From Fusobacterium varium (GTDB lineage: Bacteria > Fusobacteriota > Fusobacteriia > Fusobacteriales > Fusobacteriaceae): a stretch of DNA of 64,000 nt. The DNA lies in assembly GCA_002356455.1 (NCBI GenBank), contig AP017968.1:1240001-1304000 (forward strand). The letters run 5' to 3'. Position 1 is the stretch's first letter. Each line of letters starts with the position of its first letter. Below the pieces are notes generated by a model. That model searched no databases, had not been told where the DNA came from, and saw only the letters and a program-made list of their open reading frames with translations. Both the position numbers and the translations under genes were made by a program. This document shows positions 20,130 to 62,333 of this stretch, one piece after another.

Positions 20130-20303
20130 TTAATTTTTTTTATTGTATTTTTTGAATAATTCTAAAAGTATTACACTATTTGATATATCATACTCTTTTT
20201 TTAGTTTATTCAACTTTCGAATAATGTATTTAAAGTCTTTTTCATTAAAACGACATCCAAATAATCGATAAGTTTCTTCTTTATTTTTATTATTTTTTTC
20301 CAT
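20130..20303 (-). CDS. Small ribbon-helix-helix-like protein, cassette A
   Basis: 57 residues (starts MEKNNKNKEETYRLFGCRFN, ends LLELFKKYNKKN). It matches the core of three other small proteins here (at 21086-21352, 48983-49336 and 50153-50335): a short strand (FGCRF), a helix (EKDFKYIIRKLNKLKKEY), a turn and a second helix (NSVILLELFKKY). This order suggests a ribbon-helix-helix DNA-binding fold; that is inference. It is the counterpart of 50153-50335 in cassette B, following the FadA-family gene by 12 bases. The IS element lies immediately downstream. Confidence 0.7.
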   Translation of the reverse strand: MEKNNKNKEETYRLFGCRFNEKDFKYIIRKLNKLKKEYDISNSVILLELFKKYNKKN

Positions 20304-20315
20304 AAAATCACTTAC

Positions 20316-20678
20316 CTATTTTATTGCTTCAAATATATTAATTATTTCCTGTTGTTTTGCCATATCTGATTCCAATTCCTTTTTAGCAGCACCATATTTT
20401 TTTGCTAATTCCTGATATTGTGCTTTGTAAAACTTATTATCTTTTACACCTAATATTCTTTTTTCTTTTTCTGATATTTCTGCATACATCTTTCTTTGAG
20501 CTGCTAATGTTCTTTCAGCTTCTTCTGCTTCAGCTTTTCTTTGATTGTACATTGCTCTTTCTTCTGCTTCCAGCTGTTGAAGATTAAGTTCAAGCTGTTC
20601 AAGTGTTGACATTACATCTGTTGCTGAATATGATACTGCTGATAATGCTAAAATACATCCTATTAATATTTTTTTCAT
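20316..20678 (-). CDS. FadA-family adhesin, cassette A
   Basis: 120 residues: signal peptide (MKKILIGCILALSAVSYSA, about 1-19) and then a mature part predicted as a long helical hairpin. The FadA signature FYKAQYQELAKKY is at 83-95, with heptad repeats on both arms. FadA proteins form filaments on the fusobacterial surface and bind host cells; the mature helices pack by leucine interactions. It follows the SurA-N-like gene by 19 bases and precedes the small ribbon-helix-helix gene. Its mature N-terminus (DVMSTLEQLELNLQQLEAEE) resembles that of the cassette B copy. Which target it binds is unknown. Confidence 0.9.
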   Translation of the reverse strand: MKKILIGCILALSAVSYSATDVMSTLEQLELNLQQLEAEERAMYNQRKAEAEEAERTLAAQRKMYAEISEKEKRILGVKDNKFYKAQYQELAKKYGAAKKELESDMAKQQEIINIFEAIK

Positions 20679-20697
20679 TTTCTTTCCCCCTCATTTT

Positions 20698-21129
20698 TTA
20701 TTTGCTTTTCTCTTCTTTTTCCTTTGGTTCCTCTACCTTTATATACTCTTTTAATACATCATTTATTTTATATTTTTCTACCAGTTCATTTATTACTTTT
20801 ACTTTTTCTTCACCCAGCTTTTGGTTGAATAAAGCCTGTTGAAGCTGCGGATACACTTCCACTGTATTTTTATCTTTTAGTAGTTCAGCATTACTTTTAT
20901 ATACTTCTAACAGTTCATAATCAAATATTTGAACTGTTTTCTGTGCTATTGAATTAAGATAGAATTCTATCTCCATATTAAGTTTCATTTCCTCAAGATA
21001 CTTTTTTTCTTCTTCTGTATATTTTTTCTTTTCCATCTCTGCAAGAATCGCTTTTCTTACCAATAATTGTGCTATTCCATCTTTATTATCTTTCAATAGT
21101 TCCAATTCCGTTTTTGTTAATTTTATCAT
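20698..21129 (-). CDS. SurA-N-like small helical protein, cassette A
   Basis: 143 residues from the ATG at 21129, which has GGAGG 9 bases upstream; longer in-frame starts lie within the previous gene. No signal peptide, so cytoplasmic as it stands. The sequence IAQLLVRKAILAEMEKKKYTEEE...YLNSIAQKTVQIFDYELLEVYKSNAELL...PQLQQALFNQKLGEEKVKVINELVEKYKI follows the pattern of the N-terminal chaperone part of SurA/PrsA-type foldases (helical, tyrosine-rich, with a final long helix), but no PPIase domain is present. A lipoprotein version exists at 62334-62876. It overlaps the preceding DNA-binding-protein gene by 44 bases. The chaperone role is inference. Confidence 0.75.
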   Translation of the reverse strand: MIKLTKTELELLKDNKDGIAQLLVRKAILAEMEKKKYTEEEKKYLEEMKLNMEIEFYLNSIAQKTVQIFDYELLEVYKSNAELLKDKNTVEVYPQLQQALFNQKLGEEKVKVINELVEKYKINDVLKEYIKVEEPKEKEEKSK

Positions 21130-21352
21130 TATATTTTTCCTCCAAAATAGTATATATTTCTTTATTTTTAAGAATACTTCCATATTTTTTAAAAAGATTT
21201 AAAATTATTTTATTATTTGATCCGTATTCTTCTTTTAATTTTTTTAAACTTTCTTGAATTAATAAATATTCTTTTTCAGTAAATCGACACCCAAGAGCGC
21301 AGTAATTCTTTACTCCGCTTCCTAAAGGGCGACCTCTTTTCTTTTTTTCCAT
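21086..21352 (-). CDS. AT-hook plus ribbon-helix-helix-like protein, cassette A
   Basis: 88 residues. The N-terminus MEKKKRGRPLGSG contains an AT-hook-type core (RGRP with flanking basic residues), which binds the minor groove of A/T DNA. It continues with GCRFTEKEYLLIQESLKKLKEEY and NNKIILNLFKKYG, the shared strand-helix-helix core described for the other members. Probably a transcription or nucleoid regulator of the cassette. It starts about 35 bases after the autotransporter terminator hairpin with AAAGGAG upstream, and its end overlaps the next gene. Confidence 0.72.
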   Translation of the reverse strand: MEKKKRGRPLGSGVKNYCALGCRFTEKEYLLIQESLKKLKEEYGSNNKIILNLFKKYGSILKNKEIYTILEEKYNDKINKNGIGTIER

Positions 21353-21387
21353 ATCGCTCCTTTAATATATATAATTGTAATATATAT

Positions 21388-21415
21388 AACTGTCCTCTTT
21401 TTAAAGAGGACAGTT
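21388..21415 (-). terminator. Terminator hairpin after autotransporter A
   Basis: AACTGTCCTCTTT (21388-21400) pairs with AAAGAGGACAGTT (21403-21415), a strong hairpin directly after the autotransporter stop codon. The following minus-strand sequence is only moderately T-rich, so it may lower rather than stop transcription into the small genes. Cassette B has a hairpin at the same place. Confidence 0.75.
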
Positions 21416-21429
21416 ATTAAAAATTTAAG

Positions 21430-24400
21430 TTAGAACTTATAGTTAAATTTAACTGCATATTTTATACTTGTATCCTTTTTATGGCTTTCATCTGCTGCTG
21501 ACACTTCAAATGTCACACCCATATGGTTTGCTTTTTCTACTGTAAGTCCTATTGTTCCTACTACTTTTCCTTCTCTTTCTTCTGGTTTGATTAAACTGTA
21601 ATATCCTTCATCTCCATTTTTAAGCCTTGCCTTATTTCTGTCATAATTTTCTCCAAGCTCATACAGATATTTTGCATCTGCTGTTGCTTTTACAGATATA
21701 TCATTTCCTGCATAGATTCTTTGTGATGCTTTTACTCCTGCTCCTACCTGTGCACTGAAATAGTCATTATCCTTAATCTGTACTTCAAGTCCACCTTTGC
21801 TTCCAGCGCTCTCTTTAAAGTCATCTATTTTTCCATACTCAAGATCTAGGATTCCATATACATCCAATTCTCTTGATAAATCTGTATAAAGTGTTTTTAT
21901 AAGTCTGTTGTCCAAACTTACAGAGTAAGTATTATACTCTCCCTTATTTTCATATGTTTCCTGAAGATTAAGTTTTCTCTTAGCTATATGTCTGTTGTAT
22001 CCTAAATCCAGTCTAGTCAGCCAAGAAAGTTTGTTTTCATCGCTTAATCTCTTAACTCTGTGTACTCCAACTCTTAATGAGTATACATCCTCTTTTGAAC
22101 CGCCATCATCAAAGTCAAACTTCGATCCGGCAAATCCTAATGTATATCCATATTTAGTTCCATATTCTGCCCCTTCTTTTTCTTTCATATACAAAAGTCC
22201 CATTACCTTGTAATCATAGTCATCTATTCCTAAAGTATTATCCTTGTATTTTCCATCAGTATAGATAACACTGTATTTACTGCTGTCTTTAGTCAGATTG
22301 TATGATGATTCAAGTTCATAGAAAGAGTTAGTAAATGCCTGGTTGATATCCTGCATTCTTCCCTGAATAGTTGCATAAATATCCCCTCTGAATTCTGCCA
22401 GTTTTTTTGAAGTTTCGCTTTCAAACTGATCTGCTGGCAGTCCATCTAAATATTCATTCAACCCTTTTAATATATCTGCATCTTTACCATAACCACCACT
22501 GTTCTTTAATATATTATCCAGCCCTTTGTCCATAGCCTCAAACTGTTCTCCTATTGTTAAATCAGCATATGGTCTTTTAGCTATTACCAGACTTCCTGTA
22601 TTTGTAACTTTTGCAATAAATAAAGGTGATGTAACAGGAGTAAGTTTAGTTCCTGTTATTGTTCCCATTGCTGTATTTACAAAGCCATCTATCTCATAAG
22701 AGATACCATTTCCTGTTGATGCAAAATTAGACAGCAGTTTTACTTCTCCGCTCACACTATGCGCATTAAATAGCGGTGTTCCAGTTGTTACATCTACATA
22801 TGCTCCATCCACTATTATTGCTCCAGCTGTTGTAAGTGTTCCTCCAATTGAAGTATAGTTTCCATTGATTTTAATAGTACCATCTGGTTTGATTTCTACA
22901 GCTCCTACTTGTGCTGTTGCAAGTCCTGTTGCTCCTACAGCAGTTCCAGTACCTGTTACAACTATATTTCCTGTATTTACAACTCCTCCTGGTCCTTCAA
23001 TACCTATTCCATTATTTACAAATATTGTTCCTGTATTTGTAAATGTTGATCCTACTCCTATAAGCATTCCAACACCTTCATTGACAGTTATTGTTCCAGC
23101 ATTTTCTATTCTTGCTCCTGAATAAGCTGCCATACCTACTGTTGTTGCTCCACATGTAGCAAGAGTTCCTCCAAGATTAATGTTAGCTCCTGCTGCATTG
23201 ACAGCTACTGCTCCATCTCTTACAAGTATTCCCACTGCTCCATTATCTATATTTATTGTTCCAGTATTTGTAAATCTAGTTCCTGTTCCTTCTCCATATA
23301 CTCCTACTGAGTGATCATGATTTACTGTTATTGTTCCAGAACTTGTTGCTGTTGTTCCTCCCAGCAAATACATTCCTATAGAATTTAAATGCTCATCAGC
23401 TTTATTGTGATTTAATGATGGACCTAAGTCAGTAGCTCCTACAATTATATTTCCAGTATTTGTTACTGTATTTGCTCCATTTGAATAGATTCCTACTGAT
23501 GATGTTCCCAGTGTCATATCAGCATTGTTGATAACTGCAGCAGAATTAGAAGTCATAGTTGATGAAACTATATCTCCAGCTGCATTTCTAGTAATTATAG
23601 CCTGCTGCAGGTAAATTCCATATCCACTATCACCAATATTCCAATTTCCAGATGATGTTGTTATTATTCCATTACCAAGGATTTTGTAGATTCCTACTGA
23701 TGCTGCAGAAACTTTATTATCTATTGTCATGGCTCCTGTATATGTCACATTTCCATCACCTTCACTCACAATACCTATACTTGTATTAGCGCCAATACCC
23801 ATGTTTCCTGTTACTATTGAGTCCATTCCTTTAGCATATACTCCTATTGCATTGTCTGTTCCCACTATGATGTTTGACATATCAGCAGTTATTGTTCCTC
23901 CAGTTCCTTCACCATAGATTCCAAGACCATCTTTTCCAACAGTCATTGTTTGAGTTCCAGTTCCCTGTTTAATTACACTTCCAGCCGTCATTCCCTTTCC
24001 AAAGACACCTATACTGTAATCTCCTGCTGTAATATTTCCAGTTCCTACATATGAGCCTCCATTTAAAGAAACTCCTATTGATGATGTTGACTTATTTACA
24101 CATGATGAAGAATCTCCAACTGCTACATTTCCATTTATTGTAACTATACTGTCTTCCCCATATACACCAATATTGTTATCTCCTCCGCTTATAGACACAG
24201 TACCTGCTACAGTTAAATTAGAATTTCCTTTTGCCATTATTCCTACCTGGTTATTTTCAGTAGAACTTCCAATAGAAATTCCTCCAGCTGTAGTTCCTGT
24301 TGAATTGTTTAATACCATACCAATAGTATAGCTTCCTGTCTGAGTTATTACTGGAGCAGTTCCGAGTGCTGCCACTCCATCATAGTAAACTCCCATAGAA

Positions 24401-27400
24401 TATTTAGATGATGTTCCTGCCTGTACTGCTATTGTTGTTGTTCCAAATGCTGGAGCAGCTCCTTTTACATATGCTCCTATTCCACCATTTTGAACTGTTA
24501 TAGTTGATGCTCCTATAGCATTAATAGTTCCACCATCAGCTACTATTCCTATTTGATCATTAGCTGTGATATTTCCACTAAAATTCAATGCAGCATTGTT
24601 AGAATACATATATATTCCCTCTGTCCCAACTGTAATATTAGCTGTATTTGAAACTGTTACTGTTGTTCCTGCTCCTTGAGCATATACTCCTATACCATTA
24701 GCTCCTGTTGATATTGTGGCTGTTCCTGCAAGAGTCATATTAGCTCCATTTTCAGCTACAACTCCTATTGCACTCTTAGATGAACTTCCATTACCTGTTG
24801 TTATTGTTCCATCTATTGTTGAAGCTGCAGTTCCTGTTACAAATACTCCTACACTTTCATTCCCTAAAGCAATTGTTCCCACATTAACAGTTCCTGCTAC
24901 TCCCTCAAGAACTACCCCTGTATTTCTTGAACCTGTTGAAGCTATATTATTTGCAGTAAGTCCACTTGTTGCTCCTTTAATATATACACCTATTCCCTCT
25001 GTTCCTGTCATAGTCATATTATTATTTTGTACAGAAGTAAGTATTCCATTATTAGCTGAGTATATTCCTATTCCTTTGCTTCCTACATTAATATTTCCTG
25101 TATTTACAACATCTGCAATATCTGTGTAGATTCCTATTGATGGTGTATTTGCAGTTGATACACCAGATGCATTGATAGTTCCAGTACTATTTATTGTTAC
25201 TGGGAATGTAGGATTAGTTGTTCCTTTTACTGCTGCAAGGCCTATTCCTCCTGATGCAGCTGTTATTGTTCCAGCATTATTTACACTGTGCGCTGCAGTA
25301 AGACCAGCATCATATAACCCCATAAGTCCTGTTGCGCCTTCTCCTATACTTAGGTTTCCAGAAGAACTTAGACTTCCATTTGTTGTAGCTGCCAGTGAAC
25401 CTGATCCTGTTACATTTATATTTGCTCCAAGATTCATTGTACCACCATTATTGAAAACTCCTATTCCACCTCCAGACAGGAAGTTAAATGTCAGACTTCC
25501 ACCTGTTCCAAGATTAGCAGTTCCTCCAGCTACATACACTCCTGTACCGCCATTTATATTAAGTACACTTGTACCTGTTGTAAGAGTAGTTCCATTGTCT
25601 ACATAGATACCTATTCCTCCAACTGTATTTACAGTTCCACTATGAGTAAGATTTATTCCTGGTGTAGTTCCATCTAAATAGATTCCTACTCCATTTTGAG
25701 CGCTTACAGTTACATTACTCATTGTATATGTTCCTACTGCGCTGTTTAAAAGAATTCCTATTGAACTATTTACAGAATTTGTACCTGTTGTTATATTAGC
25801 CCCATTGAATGAAACACTATTGTCAAGAACATAAACTCCAACAGAATCCTGTCCTGTTGCTATATTTCCAGAAATTACTGAAGTTCCCTTAGCTGCAACT
25901 CCAACAGCTCCAGTTCCAGCAACATTTACTGCAAAATCAATATCTGCATTTTCACCAAATACTCCAACTCCTCCTGAAGCTATATTTAAAGTTCCTGCTG
26001 TTACTTTATTTGCTCCAGTATTTTTAAGGTATATTCCAACTGCATTTGAATTAATAGTTCCTCCAGTTCCATTGAAACTGTTTGCAGCACCATCTATATA
26101 TACCCCTGTTCCAGTAGTAGTTGTTATTGTTCCAGCATTTGTACCAGAGCTTATTCCAGCTCCTCCTATATACATTCCAAGATTAGCACCTGCTGATATA
26201 GTTCCACCAGCAGCATTTTCTGCAGCAGCAGTTTTTCCTGCTTTAGCTTCAGCAACCATACCTACAACTGATTTAGTTGGCACACTTGGTGTTCCATTCA
26301 TCAGAATAGTTCCTGAGTTGATTCCCTTACCTTCTTCTGCATATATTCCTATACTGTCATTGTCATTCATTGTAATAGTTCCTGTTGAAGTCAGCTGAGA
26401 ACCTCCTCCCACATATGAAGCTATACTGTCACTTTGTCCAAGTGTTGATGTTATGTTGGCACTGTTTACTAAAGTTATTCCATCAGCGGCATATATTCCT
26501 ATACTTTCACTTCCAATAAGAGAAATAGCTGAACTATTTGTTACAGTACCTGATGCAGTTCCCTTACTGTAGTAAACTCCTATATTTTTAGTTCCAGCTG
26601 CTGTGTTATTTACAGTTATTGTTCCCCCAGCTGCAGAGGCACCATCAGTAAGATACATTCCTGTTCCTCTTCCTGTATCTGTATTAAGAGCAAGACCGCC
26701 TGCATCTATAGTTACAATTCCGCCACTTCCATATACTCCAACTGCTCCTGCTGAAGAAGTTCCTTTTGCAGTCACAGTTCCAGATATAGTTGATGCTCCA
26801 TCTATGAATACTCCTGTTGTTTTATCTCCAGTTGCTGTAACATTAACATTTAAAGTATTATTTCCTTTAGAGTAAATCCCCACTGCTTCCTTTATAACAG
26901 CAAGCTGTCCTGTAGTTCCATTAAATATACTTGCAGTACCAGCATTTTCAAGATAGATTCCTACTGTTTTATTTCCAGGAGTTACTGCTGCTGCCACCCC
27001 ATCTACAGTTACTATTTTACCTAAATCTATTCCTACAGTGGCCCCTTTACCATAAACATAAATATTCTTATTTTCATTTGTACTTGAAAGAGTAAGACTA
27101 TCTTTGAAATCAACAGATGAATTTTCTGCAAAAACTCCCACACTTGATTTACCATTGAATACTATAGTGTTTCCAATATCAAGTTCAGTTACAGCGCCAG
27201 ATTTAACATATATTCCTGTAGTACCATCTACATTTAGATTAATTGTTCCTTTGTTTATTGCTTTAACATTAGTTCCTTCTGCATACATACCTATCTGTGT
27301 AGAATCATTGACATCAATTACTCCTGTTCCAGTATCATTAAGGATATTAGCAGTTTTCGTATACATTCCAACAGCACCTGTTTTACCAGTTCCTAAAGTT

Positions 27401-30400
27401 ATAGTTCCTTTATTAGTACCAGTATTAGCAGTACTTCCTTTAACATATATTCCAATTCCAGAAGTTCCAATATTTAAAGCTCCTGATGAAACAATACTGA
27501 TATCTTCAGCGTATACAGCAGTTCCTTTATCTAAAGCAGAAGCATTTACAGTTGTATTGATATTTCTAGTTCCTGTTCCACTTCCTTTAAAGAAGATTAC
27601 TGTTTTTCCAAGAGTTCCAGTATTATTTGAAGTTACAGTAACAGCAGTTGCTGTAAGATCTGATGTTTCATCAAGCATAACTCCAATAGCATCTGCTCCA
27701 AGGTCAAGAGTTCCAAGATTTGTAACTTTAGTTCCATTTTTAGCATAGATGGCAACTCCGCCATCACCTACAGATACTTTTCCCTGATTAGAAATAGTAG
27801 CTTTATCCCCATAGATACCAATAGCAGCATTAGCTCCACTGGAATGTCCAACTTTTATTTCTCCAGCTGCTGTATTTGTTACAGTGACATCAGCTTCTGT
27901 TCCTAAAGCATTGTTGTTATATGCATAAATACCTACAGCTCCTGTACCATCAAGAGTTATTTTATTAGTATTAGTAATATCAGCTTTTCCCTGACCTGCT
28001 GCTAATGAACCAAATTCATCAACAATTGGTGTATTTGAAGAATCTTCTCTGTATGCCATTCCTAAAATACCTATAGATAAATCTCCACCAACTTTTATAT
28101 CTCCAGCATTCGATACTGTACTTCCATTTACTGCATAAACTCCTACTGCTTGATTATTTGCAGTATTACTTTCTTTTTCAACTTTTATTGAACTTGTTCC
28201 ATCTACTGTTACAACTCCATAGTTTATAAAAGCTCCTATTGCTCCTAATCCACTGCCATCTCTGTCAGCAGTAATAGTTGAACCAACTAAATTTATTCCA
28301 GCCTCATTATTAGAAACAGCTGATTTACTTGAGTTCATTTCCAATCCAACTACCTGATTATTAAATTTTAAAGCCTGTGTATCATTAAGAACTGCCGAAA
28401 CTGTACTGTTTGTAGCTGTTGCAACAAGTCTTTGTCCTAGGAATCTGTTGTAGTAAAAGTTTCCATCTTTCTGTGCCTGAGTATCACTCAATGCACCTGT
28501 TCCTGTTTTATCCAGATTTCCAATAGCAATCGTTCCTCCATCAACAGCTGCTATTTTATATTTGTCAATACCTCCACCAGCAACTATGAGGTTTGAAAGA
28601 TTTGCTCCTCCAAGAGCTGTTCCCAGTGCTGTAGTTATACTGGCTTCCAATCCGTTTGTACTTAGTCCAGTTGCATTTTTTAGATTAAATACAACAACAT
28701 CATTAGAATCTACATGGATTCTTGAGTTTGCATCTAATGTTACAGGTGGTGTTCCTGCCAGCATATCTACATCAAATGCAGTTGCTTTTCCTTTAAGTAT
28801 CATTTTAGAATTACTTAAATTTATTTTTCCTACTCCATCTGAATAGACAGCATATCCTGAACCATCAAATTCTACAGTTCCTCCTGAAAGGTCTACATTA
28901 GAATTTGTACCAATAGATGCTGCTGCTGTTGAACCATTAGTCACTTTTATATAGTTATTTTTAGCATTGACAACTCCACCGCCTGTTGCCATAACACCAA
29001 ATCCAACATATCTGTCTGCATCATCTAATTTTGATCCAGTTATGTCTATATTAGCAGCTGCAGGAGTTGTTGCTCTGTTAAAAGTGATAACAGTATTAGC
29101 ACCTGAAGCAAAAGCAGCTCCAGTATCTTTTTTATTTGCAATTGTAGGATTAGCTCCTACTTTTGAAACTACATTTAATTCATTTGCTGTAATTTTAGCT
29201 CCATTAGCACCATATACAACTACTGAATCTTCTATATTTGTGGTATTTATTTTATTTACTTGAATAGTTTTTCCAGCTGCTGTAGAATAAACAGCCATAT
29301 TACCTACACCACCTGACAATGTTATATCTCCAGACGATGTTACATCTCCCTTATCAGTATATATTCCTATGTTGCTCTGTCCACCATATATTGTAATATT
29401 TCCTGTTCCAAGAGAAAAAGTTCCAGTTGTGTGTCCACCATAAAATCCAATATTAGATTTAGTTTGTGTTCCTATTTTTATTTCATGATTTTTTAATGAT
29501 TTTGCAAATTTAGAAGAAATTCCAACATTTCCTTCTATTAAAGTAGGATTTTGCCCAGATACAGTATCATTTCCTGTCCCTAATGTACTTTGAGCAATAT
29601 TTGTAACATTTGCATCATTTACTCCAATATTGATTTTTAAATCACTATTAGTTCCATTAAGATTAAATCCAGCTGTAAGAAAATAAGCTCCTATATTATT
29701 ATCACCATATATTTCCAAAGGTTTGTCCATAAATAAAGTTGAACCACCATCAGAAGATCCACTAATATATAATCCTACATTATTTCCACCATTAATTACT
29801 AACTTTCCATAATTCAAAAAGTTTATTTCATGATTTGTTCCTGATCTGTTAGGAGCAAATATAGCACTTGTTTTTCCATTGATAGTCATAGTTCCCGAAT
29901 TTACACTTGTAAATGTACGATAACCACTATTTTCAGCTCCATAAGCTAGTAAAGCAATTCTCGAGCTATTAGCTAATGTTTGAATTGTTCCATAGTTATG
30001 AAAAACTGTAGCACGATTAGTAGAAGAGTCATTATGTCCATCAGCTTCATAACCATTGATATAATCTCCTGACAAATTCCATGTTCCATAATTAGCTCCA
30101 TACATGATTCTAGTTGCTGTAAGAGAACCATTACCATCAGTGTTGCCTGTATTAGTATGGTTATGGTATGGATAAATTTTACTTGCAATATAATTATATT
30201 CTGCAGATGTTATTGTTTCTGCCGAAGTTCCTGACAGTAAAGTACTCAATACTGTTGCCTGATTTCCATGAACGTCATTTTTTAATAAAGCTCTTCTGTT
30301 TGTACCAGCTCCTTCCCAGTTTATAGTGACAGCACTGCCCATTCTTATAATAGGTGCTCCACACCATTTATAGAATCCTACACTTGAAGTTGCTGTTCCA

Positions 30401-31518
30401 TTATTTACATCTGCCGTACTTCCTTCACTTGAAGCGTAGTTTGCTGTTCCATTAGTAGTTGTTGGTGCTCCTGTATAATTAGTGATATAAATACTATCTA
30501 TAGAAGAAGCACTTCTTGCAGAAAATGTTCCTCCTGTCAGGTTAATTTGATTGATTGGTCCTAAATCTCCATTAGCTTTCCAATACCATGCATTATCTCC
30601 AGTTCCAGTTGTGTTTGCTCCTATACTCATATCAGGAATATTAGGCATTATCACAGTTGGAGTTTCTGGAGCTGTTGGTGCTGTTACTGTAGTTGGTTCG
30701 AATCCAGCTGGTGTAGCTGGAGCGTTTACAGTTATATTTTTGTCACTTGGAGCTGTTGGTACTGATACCACTGGTGCTGTTACTGTTATTTTTTCTACTG
30801 CACTAGGTGTCGTTACTGTTACTGATACACCTGCTGGAGCTGTTGGAGTTACTACAACAGGAGCTGTTATTGTGGGGATTCCAACTATTGTTGGTGTTAC
30901 TGTTCCCGGAAGTGCTCCTAAATTAACTGTAGGTGCTGATACTGTCACTGATATATTTGGATTTACTACTGGTAAATCTGGCTATATCGGTTTTATATTT
31001 GCTCCTACTTCAATTTCTTCTCTGAATACTTCATTATCTACTGCTACTCCATTTCCTTCAAGTATTTTGTCAACACCAATATTGCCGCTTGATTTAAGCA
31101 GACTTCTTCCACTCTTTGTTCCATAATGCTTGTTTATTGCATCAATTGTTTCTGAAAATTCGCTTATAGTTTTATTTTTCATAGTTCCATTATCTAAATG
31201 CTGATATGAAAAAAATACTTGTGTACTATTGAATGTTGGCTTAGAGTAAAAATCTCCCTTTCTTATAAGTTCCACAAAATCTGAGTTGTATTCTTTTATC
31301 AATCTTTCATTTTCTTCTATTTTTCTTCTTATTTCTTCGCGCTCTGTCTGAATTCTAGTTAAAAGATCGCTTTTAGTTTCCTGTATTTCCTCTGCTGTTA
31401 TTCCTGCACCTAAAGATATTCCTCCTGTTATCATGAAGGCTATCAAAAGCGAAAGAGAATAACTGACTTTTCTCTTCAAAAATCTCTTTAAAGATTTTTC
31501 AATGTCATTTTTTCTCAT
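21430..31518 (-). pseudogene. Giant type V autotransporter adhesin A, interrupted by an in-frame TAG
   Basis: One continuous frame of 3,362 codons, broken only by TAG at 30982-30984 (codon 179). Its intact paralogue at 38508-48554 has GCC at the aligned position. Layout: extended signal peptide (about 1-40), helical coil, Pro/Val/Thr-rich linker, a huge beta-helical passenger of repeats of the type VGIY-x-G and TNxGxIxxG, and a C-terminal beta-barrel of about 300 residues ending FNYKF. Such RadD-like proteins export their passenger through the barrel and act as surface adhesins. The 3,177 codons after the TAG stay open, so the stop is recent, suppressed, or repaired by exchange with copy B. 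A GTG at 30948 could restart translation, but without a signal peptide. Confidence 0.88.
30982..31518 (-). CDS. N-terminal fragment of autotransporter A (178 residues)
   Basis: If the TAG at codon 179 is read as stop, the product is this fragment: basic n-region plus hydrophobic signal (MRKNDIEKSLKRFLKRKVSY, then LSLLIAFMITGGISLGA), a charged coiled coil (TAEEIQETKSDLLTRIQ through NERLIKEYNSDF) and a short globular part ending VGANIKPI. The same N-terminal module opens the intact paralogue. Alone it would be an exported coil without membrane anchor. It lies 16 bases after the coiled-coil gene with a GGGGGAAG ribosome site. Confidence 0.85.
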   Translation of the reverse strand: MRKNDIEKSLKRFLKRKVSYSLSLLIAFMITGGISLGAGITAEEIQETKSDLLTRIQTEREEIRRKIEENERLIKEYNSDFVELIRKGDFYSKPTFNSTQVFFSYQHLDNGTMKNKTISEFSETIDAINKHYGTKSGRSLLKSSGNIGVDKILEGNGVAVDNEVFREEIEVGANIKPI

Positions 31519-31534
31519 AAAATCTTCCCCCTAT

Positions 31535-32116
31535 TTAATTTCCTGCTCTTACTTTCTGTTCCATCTTATCTAATCTGCTCAAGTATTCATTAAGCTTTTC
31601 ATTTTCAAGTAATAAAAGTTCAATTTCATTATTATTAGTTTTGAACTTGTCATATACTTCATCAAATTTCTGACTTAAAAATACTCTGTTTTCATCTGTT
31701 TCCATCCCCAAAACTTCTTCAAGTTTCATAATTTCTTCCTCTTCTATTTTCAGGAAAGCCATTCTTTCCCTTCCTATTTCAAAAGCTGCTCCTGCTGCTG
31801 CAATTCTTCCTTCAGGAGTATTTTCACTTCTGAATACTTTTTCCTCAAGAGATTCATTCATATCCCTTCTGATGTCTTCAATTATTTTCTTTCCTTTTTT
31901 CTCCTCTGCCTTTTCAGCAGCAATTCTTGCTTTTTCTTCAGCTTCTTTAGCTTTTTCAGCATCTTCGATAGCTTTCTGTTTAGCTTTTTCTTCAGCCTGT
32001 ATCTCTCTTCTTATCTGTTCAAGAACTTTTCTTCCCTCTTTTTCACTTACTTCCTGTGAATAAAGAGCTGTTGTTAAACAAGATAGTAAAAGAAATATCC
32101 CCAAAAGTTTTTTCAT
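31535..32116 (-). CDS. Exported coiled-coil protein of cassette A
   Basis: 193 residues with a signal peptide (MKKLLGIFLLLSCLTTALYS, cut near 20). The mature protein is almost all charged helix: an Ala/Glu/Lys-rich coil (AEEKAKQKAIEDAEKAKEA, about 37-75), a short basic linker, then IIEDIRRDMNESLEEKVF and a second coil (NNEIELLLLENEKLNEYLSRL). There is a Cys in the signal region but no clear lipobox. It is about 80% identical to 37914-38495. In both cassettes it lies directly before the giant autotransporter, in one transcript, so a role in autotransporter assembly or as a surface partner is likely. Its place resembles that of the small genes before radD in F. nucleatum. Confidence 0.8.
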   Translation of the reverse strand: MKKLLGIFLLLSCLTTALYSQEVSEKEGRKVLEQIRREIQAEEKAKQKAIEDAEKAKEAEEKARIAAEKAEEKKGKKIIEDIRRDMNESLEEKVFRSENTPEGRIAAAGAAFEIGRERMAFLKIEEEEIMKLEEVLGMETDENRVFLSQKFDEVYDKFKTNNNEIELLLLENEKLNEYLSRLDKMEQKVRAGN

Positions 32117-32298
32117 ATTTCCTTCCTCCTTAAATAATAAACTTCATTTTTTAACATTATGATTCTATAAATCTAATAATAAAATCCCCTCCTTTTTTTC
32201 TTGTTGACAAACAAATATTTTAAAACATAGATTTATAAAAGATAATTGTTGTAAAAAATGTTAATTTAATTAGTTTGTATAAAACATCATATATTCGA

Positions 32299-32326
32299 AT
32301 TATAACATATTTATATATACAAACAA
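32299..32326 (-). promoter_or_regulatory. Putative promoter of cassette A
   Basis: On the minus strand TTGTTT (32321-32326) and TATAAT (32299-32304) are spaced 16 bp apart. The leader to the ATG at 32116 would be about 175 bases, similar to the leader of cassette B. A spare GGAGGGG at about 32185-32192 on the minus strand has no ORF after it. Confidence 0.45.
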
Positions 32327-32355
32327 ATAAAAAAAATATATATAAATTAAAATGA

Positions 32356-32386
32356 TTGACAAACAATTAAAACATGTATATATAAT
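32356..32386 (+). promoter_or_regulatory. Possible plus-strand promoter toward the decayed genes
   Basis: TTGACA (32356-32361) with TATATA at 17 bp (TATAAT at 19 bp, 32381-32386). A similar TTGACAAACAA stretch occurs at about 32214. The 300 bases that follow are A/T-rich with no gene. Confidence 0.35.
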
Positions 32387-32697
32387 TGTATAAAGGCAAG
32401 AAATATTTTTTTGTAAAAATTAAAGATAATTATTAGTTTTTATAAAAAGTAATAAACTTTTATATTATATTTTTAAAAAGGCTAAAATAAATTTTTATAT
32501 GGAATAAATTTTTTTATAAAAATTAAAAATATAAAGAATTGATAAAGTAATTTAAATTAAATATAGAAATTAAAATACTTTTAAAAAAATTTTTAATAAA
32601 AGTTTAATATAATTTAAAGATAAGTATTTATAATTTTCTACACAAGGTTATATAGTGTATTCAGTAAAAAAAATTAAAAGAAAATATATATGTTAAC

Positions 32698-32852: not shown

Positions 32853-32909
32853 TAATTAAAAATAGGAGTGGTTTTATAGATTGATCTTTTGTGGACATAT
32901 TTTTTTAAT

Positions 32910-33230: not shown

Positions 33231-33241
33231 CTTAATAAACA

Positions 33242-33748: not shown

Positions 33749-33889
33749 TTTAAAAATACATAGAAAAAATTTTAAACAAATAAATAAAGAAATTTTTGAA
33801 AAATGAAAAATTACAAATATTTATCTGAAAATTGTGTAATAAAGAAATTGGTAAAATATATTAACTTAATTTTTATACACGGAGGAATC

Positions 33890-37717: not shown

Positions 37718-37746
37718 TTGTGTGTCACAAAATGTTGTGATATAAT
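37718..37746 (+). promoter_or_regulatory. Putative promoter and operator of cassette B
   Basis: TTGTGT (37718-37723) and TATAAT (37741-37746) are spaced 17 bp apart. The spacer contains a perfect palindrome, TCACAA-AATG-TTGTGA (37725-37740), placed where a bound repressor would block RNA polymerase. The leader to the first gene is about 160 bases and ends in AAGGAGG. Confidence 0.55.
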
Positions 37747-37913
37747 TTTAATTGTATATATAAGAAATAAAAACAAATATTGTACCTATATAAACATTAT
37801 TGTATAATTATATCTATTTTTAAAATTAAATTTAATATTTTTATTTAAAAAAACATATTATAGGTGTTTGTTTATATTTTTTATAATTTTAGTAAGGAGG
37901 TTAACTAATATTA

Positions 37914-38495
37914 ATGAAAAAAAATATTATGAAATTTATTTTTTTATTTTGTTTAACTACAGCCCTTTATTCACAGGAAATAAGTGAAAAAGAAGGAATG
38001 AAAGTCCTTAAGCAAATAAGAAAAGAAATTCGTATGGAAGAAAAAGAAAAGGAAAGAACTGCTAAAGAAGCAGAAAAAATCAAAGCAGCAGAGGAAAAAG
38101 CCAGAATAGCTGCTGAAAAGGCAGAGGAGAAAAAAGGAAAGAAAATAATTGAAGATATCAGAAGGGATATGAATGAATCCCTTGAGGAAAAAGTATTCAG
38201 AAGTGAAAATAATCCTGAAGCAAGAATAGTAGCAGCAGGAGAAGCCTTTAAAATAGGAAGGGAAAGAATGGCTTTTTTGAAAATGGAAGAGGAAGAAATT
38301 ATAAAGCTTGAAGAAGTTTTGGGAATGGAAACAGATGAAAACAGAGTATTTTTAAGTCAGAAATTTGATGAAGTATATGATAAGTTCAAAACTAATAATA
38401 ATGAAATTGAACTTTTATTACTTGAAAATGAGAAACTTAATGAATACTTGAGTAGACTAGATAGAATGGAACAGAAAGTAAGAGCAGGAAACTAA
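37914..38495 (+). CDS. Exported coiled-coil protein of cassette B
   Basis: 193 residues, paralogue of 31535-32116. The signal peptide runs to about residue 20 (FIFLFCLTTALYS); the ATG at codon 6 is an alternative start. Lys/Glu/Ala-rich coil at about 35-75, then the block IIEDIRRDMNESLEEKVF identical to copy A, a central segment AGEAFKIGRERMAFLKMEEEE and a C-terminal coil ending EQKVRAGN, also as in copy A. The stop is 12 bases before the autotransporter start, so the two are translated together. Periplasmic or surface partner of the autotransporter by context. Confidence 0.82.
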   Translation: MKKNIMKFIFLFCLTTALYSQEISEKEGMKVLKQIRKEIRMEEKEKERTAKEAEKIKAAEEKARIAAEKAEEKKGKKIIEDIRRDMNESLEEKVFRSENNPEARIVAAGEAFKIGRERMAFLKMEEEEIIKLEEVLGMETDENRVFLSQKFDEVYDKFKTNNNEIELLLLENEKLNEYLSRLDRMEQKVRAGN

Positions 38496-38507
38496 GGGGG
38501 AAGATAC

Positions 38508-44500: not shown

Positions 44501-47500
44501 TACATCTAATACTCTGGCAATAAACTTCCTAGAGAACGGTGGAATAGGAATATACAATAAAGGCGGAGTACTTAATCTTGGAAGTAATATAACTGTCACA
44601 GGAGCAGGTTCTCTGGCAGCTACTTTAAATGGTAGTCTAAATTCAGCTGGGAACATTACTGTTGGTGATGGGGGAGCTGGACTTTATGGAACATATGATT
44701 CTGGCACAACAACGACTCAAGAAGTTGCATCTTCTGGAACTATTACAGCTCAAAATGGTGGAATAGGTCTTGCAGCAACAAAAGGAGCAACAACTCCTAC
44801 TGGAACAGTAACAGTAAAAAATACTGGAACAATTAATGTAGCTGGAAAATCAAATGCTACTAACTCTCCTTCTGTTGCAATATATACAGATATAGCAAAT
44901 ATAGAAAATGCAGCAAATATAAATGTAGGAAATAATGGAATAGGTATATATTCTAAATATAATGGTGTAACTACATCTATCAAAAATGATAATATGACTA
45001 TTACAGGAAATGATGCAATAGGAATATATATCAATGGTGCTACAAATGGCATTACTGCAAATAATATAACATCTACTGGGGCAGGTAATACAGGAGTACT
45101 TCTTGAGAGAGCAACATCAATTTCAAATATAAATGTAGGAACTGTTGCTTTAGGTAATGCAAGTGTTGGAGTAATGGCAACAGCTAATACAATTTCTATA
45201 ATTGAAGGAACTATTAGTGTAGGTAAATCAAGTGATTCTAAGAGTGCAATAGGAATAGCAGCAAATGCTGGTTCTAATATAACTTTAGCAGGAACTGCAT
45301 CGATCACAACTGGAGAAAAAGGAATAGGAGTATATGCTGAGGGAGCTGGCACTATTATTGATGTTCAAGATGCTTCTATAATCAATGTAGGAGATAATGG
45401 AATATATCTATATTCTAAAGATGCTGCACTAAGTTTCAGTGGAAATATTACAGCTAACAACCAAATAGGAATAGTAGCTGAGGGTGGAACAGTAATTACT
45501 GCTGGGCCAGCAAGTATTACAGCTCAAAATGGTGGAATAGGGGTATATATAAAAAATGCTGTACCTACTTTGACTTCAGCAGCAATAACAGTAAAAGATG
45601 GTTCTACAAGCAATCATTCTATTGGAATTTACTATCAAAATGCAGTTTCAGTAGGAACAATTCCAGTAATTACTCAAATAGGAAACAAAACTATAGGAGT
45701 TGTACTGGATAATTCAGCTGGAAATACTCCTGCAAGTGGAATAAACCTTGCTAGTGCAAATGAACAGGTAGGGGTAATGGCAAAAAATAGTTCTACTCTT
45801 ACAGTAGCAGGGGGTATAAGTATCTCTGGAGGAAACAACAATGTTGGGGTATACGGAACTGATAACAGTACAGTTACACTTAGTGGAAATATGATTGTAG
45901 CTGCACCTGCTGTTATAGATTCAACTAATCCAATGAAGTATTCATCAGTTGGAGTATTCTTGAAAAATAGTGGATATACAGGAAATGGAGATATTTCTAT
46001 TAGAAACTATAGTATTGGAATCTATGGAAAAGAATTAAATGGTAAATCTATTTCACATACTGGAACTACTATGGCAGTAGGAAATCACGGAGTTGGAATC
46101 TATGGAACTGGTACTGGAGCAGAAAAAATAACACTAGCAATGACTTCTGGTATAATACTTGGAAAAGATAATTCTATTGGAGTATTTGCTGATGGAATGA
46201 ATTCAACAGTAATTGGGAACATAGCTATTGGGGCTAATACAAGTATAGGTATAGCAAGTAAAGGAACAGGAAATGTTGACTATACTGGAGATATGACTAT
46301 TGCAGATAAAGTTGATACAGGTTCAGTGGGAATATATAAGCTTGATGGTGCTGGAACAATTGCAACATCAGCTGGAAACTGGAATGTTGGAAATAGCGGT
46401 TATGGAATTTATGTAAAACAAACAACAGGAAAAGAAGCAGAAATCTATAATAGCGCTAATATGGTTCTTGGAATGTCAGCTGTAGGTATTTATTCGGAAG
46501 GAAAAAATAAAGTACTTAATACTGGAAACATAGAAGTAGGAGAAACTGACATAAAAGGAGATCATAATAAAATATCTGATCATCTAAACTCAGTAGGTAT
46601 ATATGCTACTAGAGGAAGTGAAGTGGAAAATGCTGTTGGAGCTACAATTAAAGTACATCATGATCATTCTGTAGGAGTATATGTTGATGGAGCAAATACA
46701 AGCTTTAAAAACTATGGAACAATAGATGTAGATTATGCTGGAGTAGGGGTCATTGTTAGAAATGGAGCAATAGCAGTGAATGAGGTAGGAGCAAATATAA
46801 TACTTGGAAGCAATATTGTTGCAGGATGTAATGCAGTTACAGTAGGAATGTCAGCATCAGGAACAGGAAGTAAAATAGTTAACAATGGGACAATAACAAT
46901 TAACGCAGGTGTGGGAATGAATATTAATGAATTTGCAACTGTAGTTAATACAGGTACATTAAATGTTAATAATGGTGTTGGTATAGAAGGAACTGGAACT
47001 GTAATCAATACAGGAACTATGAATGTAGCCCCTGGTGCAGTTGGAGAAAATGCAGGTGAGCGTCCTACTGCTAGTGTAGGAGCTGTTGTAATAAAACCAG
47101 ATGGAACAATATATATAAATGATCAATATACAGCTATTGGTGGAACTTTTGAAACTGCTGGAGATATTGTAGTAAATGGCGCACATGTAGATATTACAAC
47201 AGGAACACCTATGTTTAATGCAAACAGTGTATCTGGAGAAGTAAAAATACTTTCAAACTTTGCATCAACAGGAAATGGTATTTCATATAAAATAGAGAAT
47301 TTTGTAAATACAGCAATAGGAACAATAACAGGAAATAAACTTACTCCTGTTACATCACCATTGTTTGTAGCTAAAGTAACAAATTCAGGAGATCTTGTTA
47401 TTGTTAAAAGACCATATGCTGATTTGACAATAGGAGATCAGTTTGATGCATTAGATAAAGGTTTAGATAACATTCTTGTCAACAGTGGAGGAAGTGGAAA

Positions 47501-48554: not shown

Positions 48555-48566
48555 GAATAATTAAAA

Positions 48567-48604
48567 AATATTAGACTACCCTTGAATAAGGGTGGTCTAA
48601 TATT
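48567..48604 (+). terminator. Terminator hairpin after autotransporter B
   Basis: A 17-bp stem (48567-48583 with 48588-48604, core AGACTACCCTT/AAGGGTGGTCT), one of the strongest hairpins in the window, with only a short T-rich tail. It sits between the autotransporter and the small-gene part of the cassette, as in cassette A. Confidence 0.8.
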
Positions 48605-48633
48605 TCTAAAAGAAACTAAAGGAAAAAAAGATA

Positions 48634-48954
48634 ATGTATAAATTTAAAAATTATTTAAAAAATTTTATCTTATTTTGGATTATTGTAACAATATTCATAG
48701 GAAGCCACCATTATTGGAAAGCAAATGGAAGATACCATAAACCAGAATGGTACCAGGATTATGAAATTCTAGAATTAGATGGAAAGAAATATGCAGTAAT
48801 AAGTTATGATAAAAAAGATAATAAATTTTTAATAGTAGAGGCAACAATTCAAGATAATGAATTAATATTGGACATGAAAAAAAGTATTTTTAGCGATTTA
48901 ATAAATATTCCAATATGTTATAAAAAATTTAAAGCAGTAAAGGTCATAAAGTAA
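48634..48954 (+). CDS. Hypothetical single-helix membrane protein
   Basis: 106 residues with one N-terminal membrane helix (about 9-24, NFILFWIIVTIFIGS) and a soluble domain with repeated strands (YAVISYDKKDNKFLIVEATIQDNELILD). No family is recognised. It lies between the terminator of autotransporter B and the regulator gene; cassette A lacks it. Confidence 0.6.
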   Translation: MYKFKNYLKNFILFWIIVTIFIGSHHYWKANGRYHKPEWYQDYEILELDGKKYAVISYDKKDNKFLIVEATIQDNELILDMKKSIFSDLINIPICYKKFKAVKVIK

Positions 48955-48982
48955 CCTTGAGCTAATTTGGAAGGTGAAAAAT

Positions 48983-49336
48983 ATGAATGAAAAAATTAAA
49001 AGAAGAGGAAGACCATTAGGAAGTGGAAATAGAAATAAGACTATTTTAGGGATAAGGGTTACTGATGAAGAATTTGAAATAATTCAAAAAGGACTTAGAA
49101 AACTAAAAACTGAATTTAAAACAAACAGAGAAATAGTTATATATCTATTTAAAAAATACGATAATCTTGAAGTAAAAGACAATGTTGAAGATAATAATCC
49201 ACTTCTTGAATTAATAAGTGAAGAATTAAATAAAAATAGATATACAAAAGAAGAAAAAAGACAACTAAGAAAAATATATATAGAAATCCAAAACAAAGGG
49301 ATAACAAAAATCTTCAATATACAAAATAATAATTAA
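48983..49336 (+). CDS. AT-hook plus ribbon-helix-helix-like protein, cassette B
   Basis: 117 residues from the ATG at 48983 (GGAAGGTG upstream; the GTG at 48974 lies within that site). It begins MNEKIKRRGRPLGSG, with an AT-hook-type RGRP core, followed by the shared strand-helix-helix block (LGIRVTDEEFEIIQKGLRKL, then TNREIVIYLFKKY). Unlike copy A it has about 50 further residues rich in Asn, Glu and Lys (YTKEEKRQLRKIYIEIQNKG) that partly resemble the helical start of the next gene's product. Probably a DNA-binding regulator of the cassette. Confidence 0.72.
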   Translation: MNEKIKRRGRPLGSGNRNKTILGIRVTDEEFEIIQKGLRKLKTEFKTNREIVIYLFKKYDNLEVKDNVEDNNPLLELISEELNKNRYTKEEKRQLRKIYIEIQNKGITKIFNIQNNN

Positions 49337-49345
49337 GGAGAAGAA

Positions 49346-49771
49346 ATGGAAATAAAATTAACAAAGGAAGAATTAAAAAGATTAAATGGAAATAAAGATG
49401 GAATAGCACAGCTTCTAGTAAGAAAAGCTGTCCTTACAGAAATGGAAAATAAAGAATATACAGAGGAAGAAAAGAAGTATTTAGAAGAAATGAAGCTTAA
49501 TATGGAGATAGAATATTATCTTAATTCAATAGCACAAAAGACAGTTCAAATATATGATTATGAACTTTTAGAAGTATATAAGAATAATGCAGAATTACTA
49601 AAGGATAAAAATACAGCAGAGATATATCCACAGCTGCAGCAAGCCTTATTCAATCAAAAACTTGGAGAGGAAAAAGTAAAAGTAATAAATGAAATAATTG
49701 AGAAGTATAAGATAAATGATACATTAGAAGAATATATACCATTAGAAGAAGAAAAGAAAGAAAAAAAATAG
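49346..49771 (+). CDS. SurA-N-like small helical protein, cassette B
   Basis: 141 residues, no signal peptide, paralogue of 20698-21129 over the full length (shared IAQLLVRKA, EEKKYLEEMKLNMEIE, QLQQALFNQKLGEEKVKVIN). The pattern of helices fits the N-terminal chaperone core of SurA/PrsA foldases without the PPIase domain. Its neighbour codes for a FadA-type helical adhesin, so it may keep that or another partner soluble before export; this is inference, since the usual SurA works in the periplasm. AAGGAG upstream; 10 bases before the FadA-family start. Confidence 0.75.
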   Translation: MEIKLTKEELKRLNGNKDGIAQLLVRKAVLTEMENKEYTEEEKKYLEEMKLNMEIEYYLNSIAQKTVQIYDYELLEVYKNNAELLKDKNTAEIYPQLQQALFNQKLGEEKVKVINEIIEKYKINDTLEEYIPLEEEKKEKK

Positions 49772-49781
49772 AGGAGGAATT

Positions 49782-50144
49782 ATGAAAAAAATACTAGTAG
49801 GATGCATATTATTAATATCAACAGCGTCATATTCATCAGCAGATGTATTATCAACATTAGAGCAGCTTGAAGTTAATTTCAAGCAATTGGAAACAGAAGA
49901 AACGGCTATGTATAATCAAAGAAAAGCTGAAGCGGAAGAAGCAGAGAAAACGCTGATATCTTTAAGAGCAAAATATCAGAAACTGCTAGGAACAGAAAAA
50001 TATATAACTGAAGTGGAACCATATAGATATTACCAAAAAGACTATAAAGAATTATTGAAAAAATGCAGAGAAGAGAAAGAAGAAATGCGAAAAGAAATCG
50101 AAGAAAAAGAAGAGATAATAAATATTTATCAGGCAATTATGTAG
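49782..50144 (+). CDS. FadA-family adhesin, cassette B
   Basis: 120 residues, signal peptide to about 19 (MKKILVGCILLISTASYSS), mature start DVLSTLEQLEVNFKQLETEE matching the cassette A copy. The FadA signature is altered here: YYQKDYKELLKKCREEK (83-99) instead of FYKxQYxxLAxKY, and it has a cysteine (Cys95) in the second helix, which FadA proteins normally lack. It should still form a helical hairpin for filament assembly, possibly with disulfide links. GAGGAGG ribosome site. Confidence 0.83.
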   Translation: MKKILVGCILLISTASYSSADVLSTLEQLEVNFKQLETEETAMYNQRKAEAEEAEKTLISLRAKYQKLLGTEKYITEVEPYRYYQKDYKELLKKCREEKEEMRKEIEEKEEIINIYQAIM

Positions 50145-50152
50145 AGGAATGT

Positions 50153-50335
50153 ATGGAAAAAAGAGAAAAAGAGGCACAAAAATACCGTTTATATGGCTGT
50201 CACTTTACTAAAGAAGAATATACTTTTATACAAAAGAAAATAAAAAGATTAAGTAATATTAAAGGTCAAAGAAGGAACAATACTCAGATATTGCTAGAGT
50301 TATTTAAGCTTGCATTGAGAGGCAAAATGGAATGA
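50153..50335 (+). CDS. Small ribbon-helix-helix-like protein, cassette B
   Basis: 60 residues from ATG 50153, 8 bases after the FadA-family stop; a longer frame from 50063 lies inside that gene. It starts MEKREKEAQKYRLYGCHFTK and continues EEYTFIQKKIKRL, then NTQILLELFKLAL, the same strand-helix-helix core as in the three other members. It lacks the AT-hook. Counterpart of 20130-20303. Next to an HU-like gene. Confidence 0.68.
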   Translation: MEKREKEAQKYRLYGCHFTKEEYTFIQKKIKRLSNIKGQRRNNTQILLELFKLALRGKME

Positions 50336-62070: not shown

Positions 62071-62092
62071 TCTTAATTAAAGGAGAAAGAAT

Positions 62093-62302: not shown

Positions 62303-62333
62303 TAAGTTATTGCAGAAGGAGAAAAAATAAAAA

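What the first reader, a model, noticed from the sequence alone, without database searches (positions are those of the whole stretch)
20130..50335. Inverted twin cassettes: giant autotransporter + coiled coil + FadA + foldase-like protein + two DNA-binding proteins
Cassette A (minus, 32116 to 20130) and cassette B (plus, 37914 to 50335) have the same six-gene order: exported coiled-coil protein, autotransporter of about 3,350 codons, hairpin, AT-hook/ribbon-helix-helix-like protein, SurA-N-like helical protein, FadA-family adhesin, small ribbon-helix-helix-like protein. FadA and RadD-like families are known to be expanded in invasive Fusobacterium, but a fixed module joining both adhesin types to their own DNA-binding proteins and a foldase-like protein is, to my knowledge, not described as a system. 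Conserved order after duplication suggests the parts work together, for example as a self-regulated surface fibre complex.
Basis: partly seen in the sequence, partly recalled or inferred. Interest (0 to 1): 0.82.

Follow-up and report, generated by a model that had tools for sequence, protein, structure and literature searches.

The report
Adhesin operons with private DNA-binding proteins
The two mirror-image gene sets are two members of a family of 18 giant surface-adhesin gene clusters in the gut bacterium Fusobacterium varium, built from two exchangeable halves, one of which adds a second adhesin, a helper protein and small DNA-binding proteins that probably switch these clusters on and off.

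Summary
The genome is F. varium Fv113-g1 (exact contig lengths). The six-gene order in both cassettes is real, with corrections: autotransporter (AT) A has an in-frame TAG at codon 179, and cassette B carries two further genes, one HU/IHF-like. A and B are not recent twins. They are mosaic members of 18 giant-AT loci on the chromosome and both plasmids.

The cassette is two reassorting blocks: front (coiled coil + AT) and back (AT-hook protein, SurA-N-like protein, FadA, small paralogue, often HU). A strong stem-loop follows 17 of the 18 giant ATs. The front pairing, and the SurA-N-like/FadA pairing, occur in other Fusobacteriota genera. The AT-hook family is essentially confined to four genomes of the varium/ulcerans type.

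AT-FadA proximity and co-induction are already published for this genome, as is the FadA-containing radD operon. What seems undescribed is the DNA-binding part: 47-58 HU-like genes per genome in those four genomes against 1-15 in the other 94 Fusobacteriota, about half of them directly downstream of ATs in the two genomes counted.

Best reading: adhesin operons with terminal regulator genes, working like MrpJ in fimbrial operons, plus a helper for FadA. Regulation is inferred, not shown.

The parts
32299..32326 (-). Cassette A promoter: TTGTTTGT at the -35 position (32326-32319) and TATAAT (32304-32299); further copies of the element at 32366-32359 and, in the leader, TTTGTTTGTC at 32215-32206
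   Evidence: motif counts
31535..32116 (-). CC: exported coiled-coil protein, 193 aa, front block, cassette A
   Evidence: alignment A3; dN/dS median 0.20
21430..31518 (-). Giant autotransporter A, interrupted by in-frame TAG at codon 179 (30982-30984)
   Evidence: PF03797 barrel at this place
21386..21417 (-). Stem-loop directly after the AT stop codon, no U-tract, before the next ribosome-binding site
21086..21352 (-). ATH: AT-hook motif (RGRPLGSG) plus beta-alpha-alpha domain, 88 aa; overlaps the start of SUR
20698..21129 (-). SUR: SurA-N-like all-helical protein, 143 aa, no signal peptide
   Evidence: model of the B copy
20316..20678 (-). FadA-family adhesin, 120 aa, with signal peptide
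20130..20303 (-). RHH: small paralogue of the ATH core domain, 57 aa
37718..37746 (+). Cassette B promoter: TTGTGTGT (37718-37725) and TATAAT (37741-37746)
37914..38495 (+). CC, cassette B, 193 aa
38508..48554 (+). Giant autotransporter B, 3,348 aa, open
   Evidence: barrel PF03797 83.5 bits
48567..48604 (+). Stem-loop after AT B, no U-tract
48634..48954 (+). X106: 106-aa protein with an N-terminal hydrophobic segment; only here and on plasmid C3 among the 18 giant-AT loci, 100% identical
48974..49336 (+). ATH, cassette B, 120 aa from the GTG start (ATG at 48983 also possible)
49346..49771 (+). SUR, cassette B, 141 aa, AlphaFold mean pLDDT 91.7
49782..50144 (+). FadA-family adhesin, cassette B
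   Evidence: PF09403 43 bits, cut-off 28.5
50153..50335 (+). RHH, cassette B, 60 aa
50349..50660 (+).
   Evidence: PF00216 64.5 bits
61439..63797 (+). Related divergent set: HU - HU - small lipoprotein - SUR lipoprotein - coiled-coil lipoprotein - FadA; a second FadA runs past the window end and is followed by CC and a giant AT (L019)

Best explanation
Each cassette is a composite adhesin operon of the F. varium/ulcerans group. The front block makes a giant type Va autotransporter and its dedicated exported coiled-coil partner. The back block makes a FadA adhesin, a SurA-N-fold helper that stays in the cytoplasm and probably chaperones FadA before export, and two or three DNA-binding proteins (ATH, RHH, often HU). 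The DNA-binding proteins, made last and probably in smaller amounts behind a stem-loop that separates them from the long AT message, are proposed to feed back on promoters carrying repeated TTGTNTGT elements, so that the operon regulates itself and the paralogous operons influence each other, as MrpJ does among fimbrial operons. Shown: anatomy, recurrence, two-block structure, purifying selection, stem-loop, repeated promoter elements. Supported by published RNA-seq: AT and FadA of two such modules rise together. Inferred: DNA binding by ATH/RHH, the operator, the feedback, and the chaperone role.
For: Recurrence of the order among 18 giant-AT loci and in three relatives. Two blocks by distance-matrix correlation: CC with the AT N-terminus r 0.83 (p 0.0006), ATH with RHH r 0.90 (p 0.0014), ATH with FadA r 0.71; near zero across blocks for CC-RHH and AT barrel-FadA. 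AT A and the AT at 2.52 Mb are 98.8% identical over 6.7 kb up to exactly the AT stop codon, and differ downstream. Median dN/dS 0.11 SUR, 0.20 CC, 0.25 FadA, 0.32 RHH, 0.31 HU, 0.52 ATH. FadA next to an ATH/RHH gene away from giant ATs in all four genomes. SUR beside FadA in three further genera. Stem-loops after 17 of 18 giant ATs, without a U-tract where the module follows. Promoter element with -10 box in 13 of 21 CC upstream regions against 1 of 204 control genes. HU genes follow ATs in the two genomes counted: 28/58 and 25/55, shifted means 1.4 and 0.9, 0 of 2,000 shifts. Published co-induction of AT/FadA pairs. MrpJ precedent: 10 of 17 fimbrial operons.
Against: No DNA-binding family matches ATH/RHH by sequence or fold search, and the AT-hook is a short motif. 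The TTGTNTGT promoter also precedes loci without ATH (L018, L098, L099) and is missing before some full modules (L015, L016), so motif and protein do not track each other well. SUR resembles SurA only weakly (Foldseek E 1.1). About half of the AT loci have no regulator gene. Genus g6 genome G038 carries 25 ATs with only 3 HU genes, so ATs do not need them. Co-transcription across the stem-loop has not been shown.
Confidence: 0.45

Rival explanations
1. The small genes are passengers. The back block is a separate FadA transcription unit that happens to insert behind giant ATs (or travels with them by recombination), and its DNA-binding proteins regulate only FadA or nothing near by.
For: The two blocks reassort with a breakpoint at the AT stop codon. 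FadA + ATH/RHH exists away from giant ATs in four genomes. Eight of 18 giant ATs have neither ATH/RHH nor HU downstream. A stem-loop separates the blocks.
Against: Published RNA-seq shows AT and FadA of two modules induced together. The back block is repeatedly behind an AT on the same strand, far above chance. HU genes also sit behind unrelated shorter ATs.
Confidence: 0.3
2. Expression of the whole family is set by a global regulator (for example a CarSR-like two-component system, as for radABCD); the local DNA-binding proteins fine-tune nucleoid structure at AT-rich loci, like xenogeneic silencers, rather than acting as specific regulators.
For: CarR binds the radABCD promoter directly in F. 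nucleatum. HU-like genes also end polysaccharide and other loci. AT-hook and HU proteins usually have low sequence specificity (established knowledge).
Against: The published CarR sites seen in the paper's table are nearly pure A/T 17-mers, unlike the TTGTNTGT element found here, so the repeated element is not an evident CarR box.
Confidence: 0.2
3. HU/IHF-like and AT-hook proteins assist recombination among the repetitive AT genes (gene conversion, cassette shuffling), generating surface variation, rather than controlling transcription.
For: Clear mosaicism between cassettes; IHF and HU assist site-specific recombination in other bacteria (established knowledge).
Against: No recombinase gene is part of the module and no common breakpoint site was identified; mosaicism is expected from long homologous repeats alone.
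Confidence: 0.05

Closest known systems
radD operon of Fusobacterium nucleatum (rapA/fadA2 - rapB - fad-I - radD; also called radABCD)
   Same: One operon joins a FadA-family protein, small exported proteins and a giant autotransporter; a small operon member (FAD-I) lowers radD expression
   Different: FadA is upstream of the AT there, and no AT-hook, HU or SurA-N-like gene is described in that four-gene operon; here the regulators and FadA are downstream and the module is multi-copy
FadA paralogues adjacent to T5SS in F. varium Fv113-g1 (Sekizuka et al. 2017, PMC5720691)
   Same: The same genome and loci; adjacency and co-induction of two AT/FadA pairs reported
   Different: In the text read, CC, ATH, SUR, RHH and HU, the two-block structure and the HU expansion are not mentioned
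MrpJ-type regulators at the end of fimbrial operons (Proteus mirabilis, E. coli PapX)
   Same: A regulator gene at the 3' end of many, not all, paralogous adhesin operons (10 of 17 fimbrial operons; here 10 of 18 giant ATs carry an ATH/RHH or HU gene)
   Different: Different protein families; regulation is demonstrated for MrpJ and only inferred here
IHF alpha/beta and HU (PF00216)
   Same: PF00216 domain; the B protein keeps an NP(K)TK arm motif and FKxGK (sequence)
   Different: Divergent (30-75 bits against 85-101 for the genome's canonical copies), often in tandem pairs, and linked to surface loci
SurA N-terminal domain
   Same: Best PDB fold match is SurA, with other SurA-type isomerases next
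   Different: Weak score (E 1.1), no parvulin domain, no signal peptide in the cassettes, though lipoprotein relatives exist

Membership tests
Type Va autotransporter | C-terminal PF03797 beta-barrel above cut-off | tested here: met
   83.5 bits for B; both cassettes
Type Va autotransporter | Intact reading frame from signal sequence to barrel | tested here: not met
   Cassette A only: TAG at codon 179; cassette B is intact
FadA adhesin family | PF09403 above cut-off and a signal peptide | tested here: met
   43.2 bits, cut-off 28.5; A and B copies; hydrophobic N-terminus in sequence
radD operon | FadA-like, RapB, FAD-I and RadD in that order | tested here: not met
   Cassettes have FadA downstream of the AT and no small lipoprotein before it; the set at 61439-64000 plus L019 is nearer
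radD operon | Function in coaggregation | not testable with these tools
   Needs mutants
SurA / parvulin foldase | Parvulin (rotamase) domain | tested here: not met
   141-143 aa, no Pfam match
SurA / parvulin foldase | Periplasmic location | tested here: not met
   No signal peptide in A, B or the other cassette copies; relatives at 62334 and in L025 are lipoproteins
SurA / parvulin foldase | SurA N-domain fold | tested here: inconclusive
   All-helical model at pLDDT 91.7; top PDB match SurA, TM 0.44, E 1.1
Ribbon-helix-helix DNA-binding proteins (ATH, RHH) | Sequence or fold match to a known RHH family | tested here: not met
   No significant match; only E-H-H topology
Ribbon-helix-helix DNA-binding proteins (ATH, RHH) | DNA binding | not testable with these tools
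   An AT-hook motif RGRPLGSG is present in ATH, not in the cassette RHH copies
HU/IHF family | PF00216 above cut-off | tested here: met
   64.5 bits for the cassette B protein; 58 genes in the genome
MrpJ-like operon-terminal regulators | Regulator gene at the end of several paralogous adhesin operons | tested here: met
   As a pattern only: 10 of 18 giant ATs
MrpJ-like operon-terminal regulators | Homology to MrpJ and demonstrated regulation | not tested
   ATH/RHH/HU were not compared with MrpJ directly; Pfam and NCBIfam gave no helix-turn-helix match

The most novel reading that the evidence does not exclude
The F. varium/ulcerans group evolved a distributed nucleoid-protein control layer: about 50 divergent HU/IHF-like genes, many as tandem (heterodimer-like) pairs, plus AT-hook proteins, many of them encoded at the end of a surface-structure locus and acting on it or on its paralogues to give selective, perhaps mutually exclusive, expression of one among dozens of surface adhesins.
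Probability: 0.25. Interest if true: 0.82.

Novelty: new variant of a known kind. Interest (0 to 1): 0.6.

Why it matters
F. varium has been linked to ulcerative colitis and carries very large adhesin repertoires. How such a cell chooses among about 18 giant and 29 shorter autotransporters is an open question. Operon-borne DNA-binding proteins and a lineage-specific burst of HU/IHF-like genes at surface loci give a concrete candidate for that choice, testable with gene deletions and DNA-binding assays. The SUR family, found in several fusobacterial genera and unclassified in Pfam and NCBIfam, is also a candidate FadA helper.

Tried and rejected
Recent inverted duplication as the origin of A and B: rejected by synonymous divergence and closer relatives elsewhere. 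Terminator between AT and back block: the stem-loops in front of module genes lack a U-tract, and the pattern scan listed none there. CarR box as identity of the TTGTNTGT element: published sites are nearly pure A/T. Clean operator-regulator match: motif presence does not track ATH presence. The strict full-promoter pattern with a TTTGT core found only 3 sites; the looser form was used afterwards, so the counts were made on a pattern written after seeing these promoters. PHROGs, Pfam, NCBIfam and PDB sequence searches for SUR and ATH gave nothing useful. The named-genome scan returned one locus. An apparent lack of PF03797 in the full-length AT was an effect of searching a very long protein: the C-terminal part scores 83.5 bits.
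Full report
WHAT THE WINDOW IS. The window is G000:C1:1240001-1304000 of a genome whose contigs are 3,965,155, 89,623 and 68,063 bases. [quoted passage not shown] The genome has 47 PF03797 barrels, 18 of them in giant autotransporters (ATs) of about 3,140-3,640 codons.

OBSERVATION. Both cassettes carry, in mirror orientation, CC - AT - stem-loop - ATH - SUR - FadA - RHH. Three corrections matter. AT A has an in-frame TAG at codon 179, so cassette A may not make a full-length AT, while the 98.8% identical AT at 2.52 Mb is open; the genome paper lists two chromosomal pseudo-ATs, and I could not check that this is one of them. Cassette B has two more genes, X106 and an HU/IHF-like gene. ATH and RHH are paralogues of each other.

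NOT TWINS BUT MEMBERS OF A FAMILY. The full or nearly full order recurs at 3.68, 1.79 and 3.14 Mb and on both plasmids; partial versions occur at 0.31, 0.09, 1.33, 1.76 and 2.52 Mb; others are CC+AT or AT alone. Synonymous divergence between A and B is about 1.0-1.2 for SUR, FadA and ATH. The back half of B is closest to plasmid C3 (HU 98%, SUR 95%, FadA 94%), whereas its AT barrel is closest to those of 1.76 and 3.68 Mb. AT A shares 6.7 kb at 98.8% with the AT at 2.52 Mb, ending exactly at the AT stop codon, after which the two loci differ.

TWO BLOCKS. Distance matrices across cassettes show CC varying with the AT N-terminus (r 0.83, p 0.0006) and ATH with RHH (0.90), SUR (0.61) and FadA (0.71). 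Across the blocks it is weak or absent for CC-FadA (0.13), CC-RHH (-0.04) and AT barrel-FadA (0.02), though SUR and ATH show moderate correlation with the front block. These are 6-15 loci per comparison and many pairs were tested, so single p-values should be read loosely. SUR is under strong purifying selection (median dN/dS 0.11); the other families range from 0.20 to 0.52.

HOW FAR THE MODULE REACHES. In the three other genomes of the same type (G026-G028), 27 of 28 CC genes precede a giant AT, and 23 of 32 ATH/RHH and 13 of 24 SUR follow one. ATH/RHH is essentially absent elsewhere: 8 of 98 genomes have any match, four of those weak. A FadA followed by an ATH/RHH gene, away from any giant AT, is present in all four genomes, so this family belongs to FadA at least as much as to the AT.

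HU-LIKE GENES. PF00216 finds 58 genes here and 55 in G026. In G000, 28 of 58 lie within 3.5 kb downstream of an AT on the same strand (circular-shift mean 1.4, 0 of 2,000 shifts as high); in G026, 25 of 55 (mean 0.9). Many are tandem pairs (18 in G000). Several copies behind short ATs have identical spacings, so these are partly products of duplication and not all independent. HU genes also end sialic-acid/polysaccharide clusters and FadA-lipoprotein sets. G038 has 25 ATs and 3 HU genes, so the link is a lineage trait and not a need of ATs.

STEM-LOOPS AND PROMOTERS. In 17 of 18 giant-AT loci the AT stop codon is followed by a strong local stem-loop (-16 to -29 kcal/mol in the scanned windows); the exception is 2.52 Mb, where only a weak one was found by that scan. 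Stem sequences differ between loci, and before module genes there is no U-tract but a ribosome-binding site close behind. This suggests processing or stabilisation of the AT message and lower output of downstream genes, rather than termination (inference). Upstream of CC, a TTGTNTGT element at the -35 position with TATAAT 12-18 nt on, often with a second copy about 112 nt downstream and sometimes a third upstream, recurs in 13 of 21 regions from four genomes (both elements in 9), against 1 (and 0) of 204 control genes. The pattern was written after inspecting these promoters, which are partly related by descent, so the contrast is inflated. It also occurs where ATH is absent and is missing before some full modules, so assigning it to ATH/RHH is only a lead.

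PROTEINS. SUR folds as an all-helical protein with high confidence (pLDDT 91.7); its nearest PDB matches are SurA and related isomerases, weakly (E 1.1). It lacks the parvulin domain and, in the cassettes, any export signal; lipoprotein relatives exist at 62334-62876 and in other genera. ATH has an AT-hook motif and a beta-alpha-alpha core (pLDDT near 90 in the core, mean 72), but no database match supports an RHH fold.

WHAT IS ALREADY KNOWN. The paper on this genome states that FadA paralogues lie close to ATs and that two AT/FadA pairs (FV113-G1_15670/15700 and 32990/32960) rise together in D-MEM. By tag order and position these should be the 1.79 and 3.68 Mb modules (my inference). In F. 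nucleatum, radD is in an operon with a FadA homologue and two lipoproteins, one of which lowers radD expression, and CarR controls it. I found no report of the AT-hook, SUR or HU parts in the searches made, which cover only open-licence papers; the 2014 comparative paper on Fusobacterium invasion was not held.

INTERPRETATION. The best-supported mechanism is a composite adhesin operon whose downstream block supplies FadA, a cytoplasmic helper and feedback regulators, working like MrpJ in fimbrial operons (10 of 17 operons there; 10 of 18 giant ATs here). Anatomy and recurrence are shown; regulation, operator and chaperone roles are inferred. I put the full mechanism at 0.45.

Noticed in passing
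Whole genome; window 50349-50660, 57198-57476, 61439-62070: Lineage-specific burst of HU/IHF-like genes: 58 here and at least 47 in three related genomes, against 1-15 in 94 other Fusobacteriota, often in tandem pairs behind autotransporters or polysaccharide clusters.
   Followed up: partly
window 30982-30984: In-frame TAG at codon 179 of autotransporter A; a near-identical open copy exists at 2.52 Mb.
   Followed up: yes
window 61439-64000 and L019: A divergent related set (HU, HU, lipoprotein, SUR lipoprotein, coiled-coil lipoprotein, FadA, FadA) followed by CC and a run of giant autotransporters; a similar set without a giant AT nearby is in L025.
   Followed up: partly
L117 3394-3984: Solitary FadA followed by an AT-hook protein, with counterparts in G026, G027 and G028 that are not downstream of a giant autotransporter.
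   Followed up: partly
L109, L111, L112: HU-like gene pairs lie next to sialic-acid and other polysaccharide synthesis genes.
   Followed up: no
L110 4931-9187: A 1,228-aa autotransporter-like protein without a PF03797 match, followed by two HU-like genes.
   Followed up: no
window 18478-19956: Transposase of 492 aa beside cassette A, also found in L025, L114 and L117; probably the ISFv2 element (IS5/IS1182 type) reported for this genome.
   Followed up: no
window 33803-37111: A third, shorter autotransporter (1,102 aa, PF03797 102.7 bits) lies between the two cassettes.
   Followed up: no
L123, L125, L127: In genus g12 the SUR domain is fused to a long low-complexity C-terminal extension (322-430 aa in total); in Sebaldella-like and Leptotrichia-like genomes it is doubled.
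   Followed up: no
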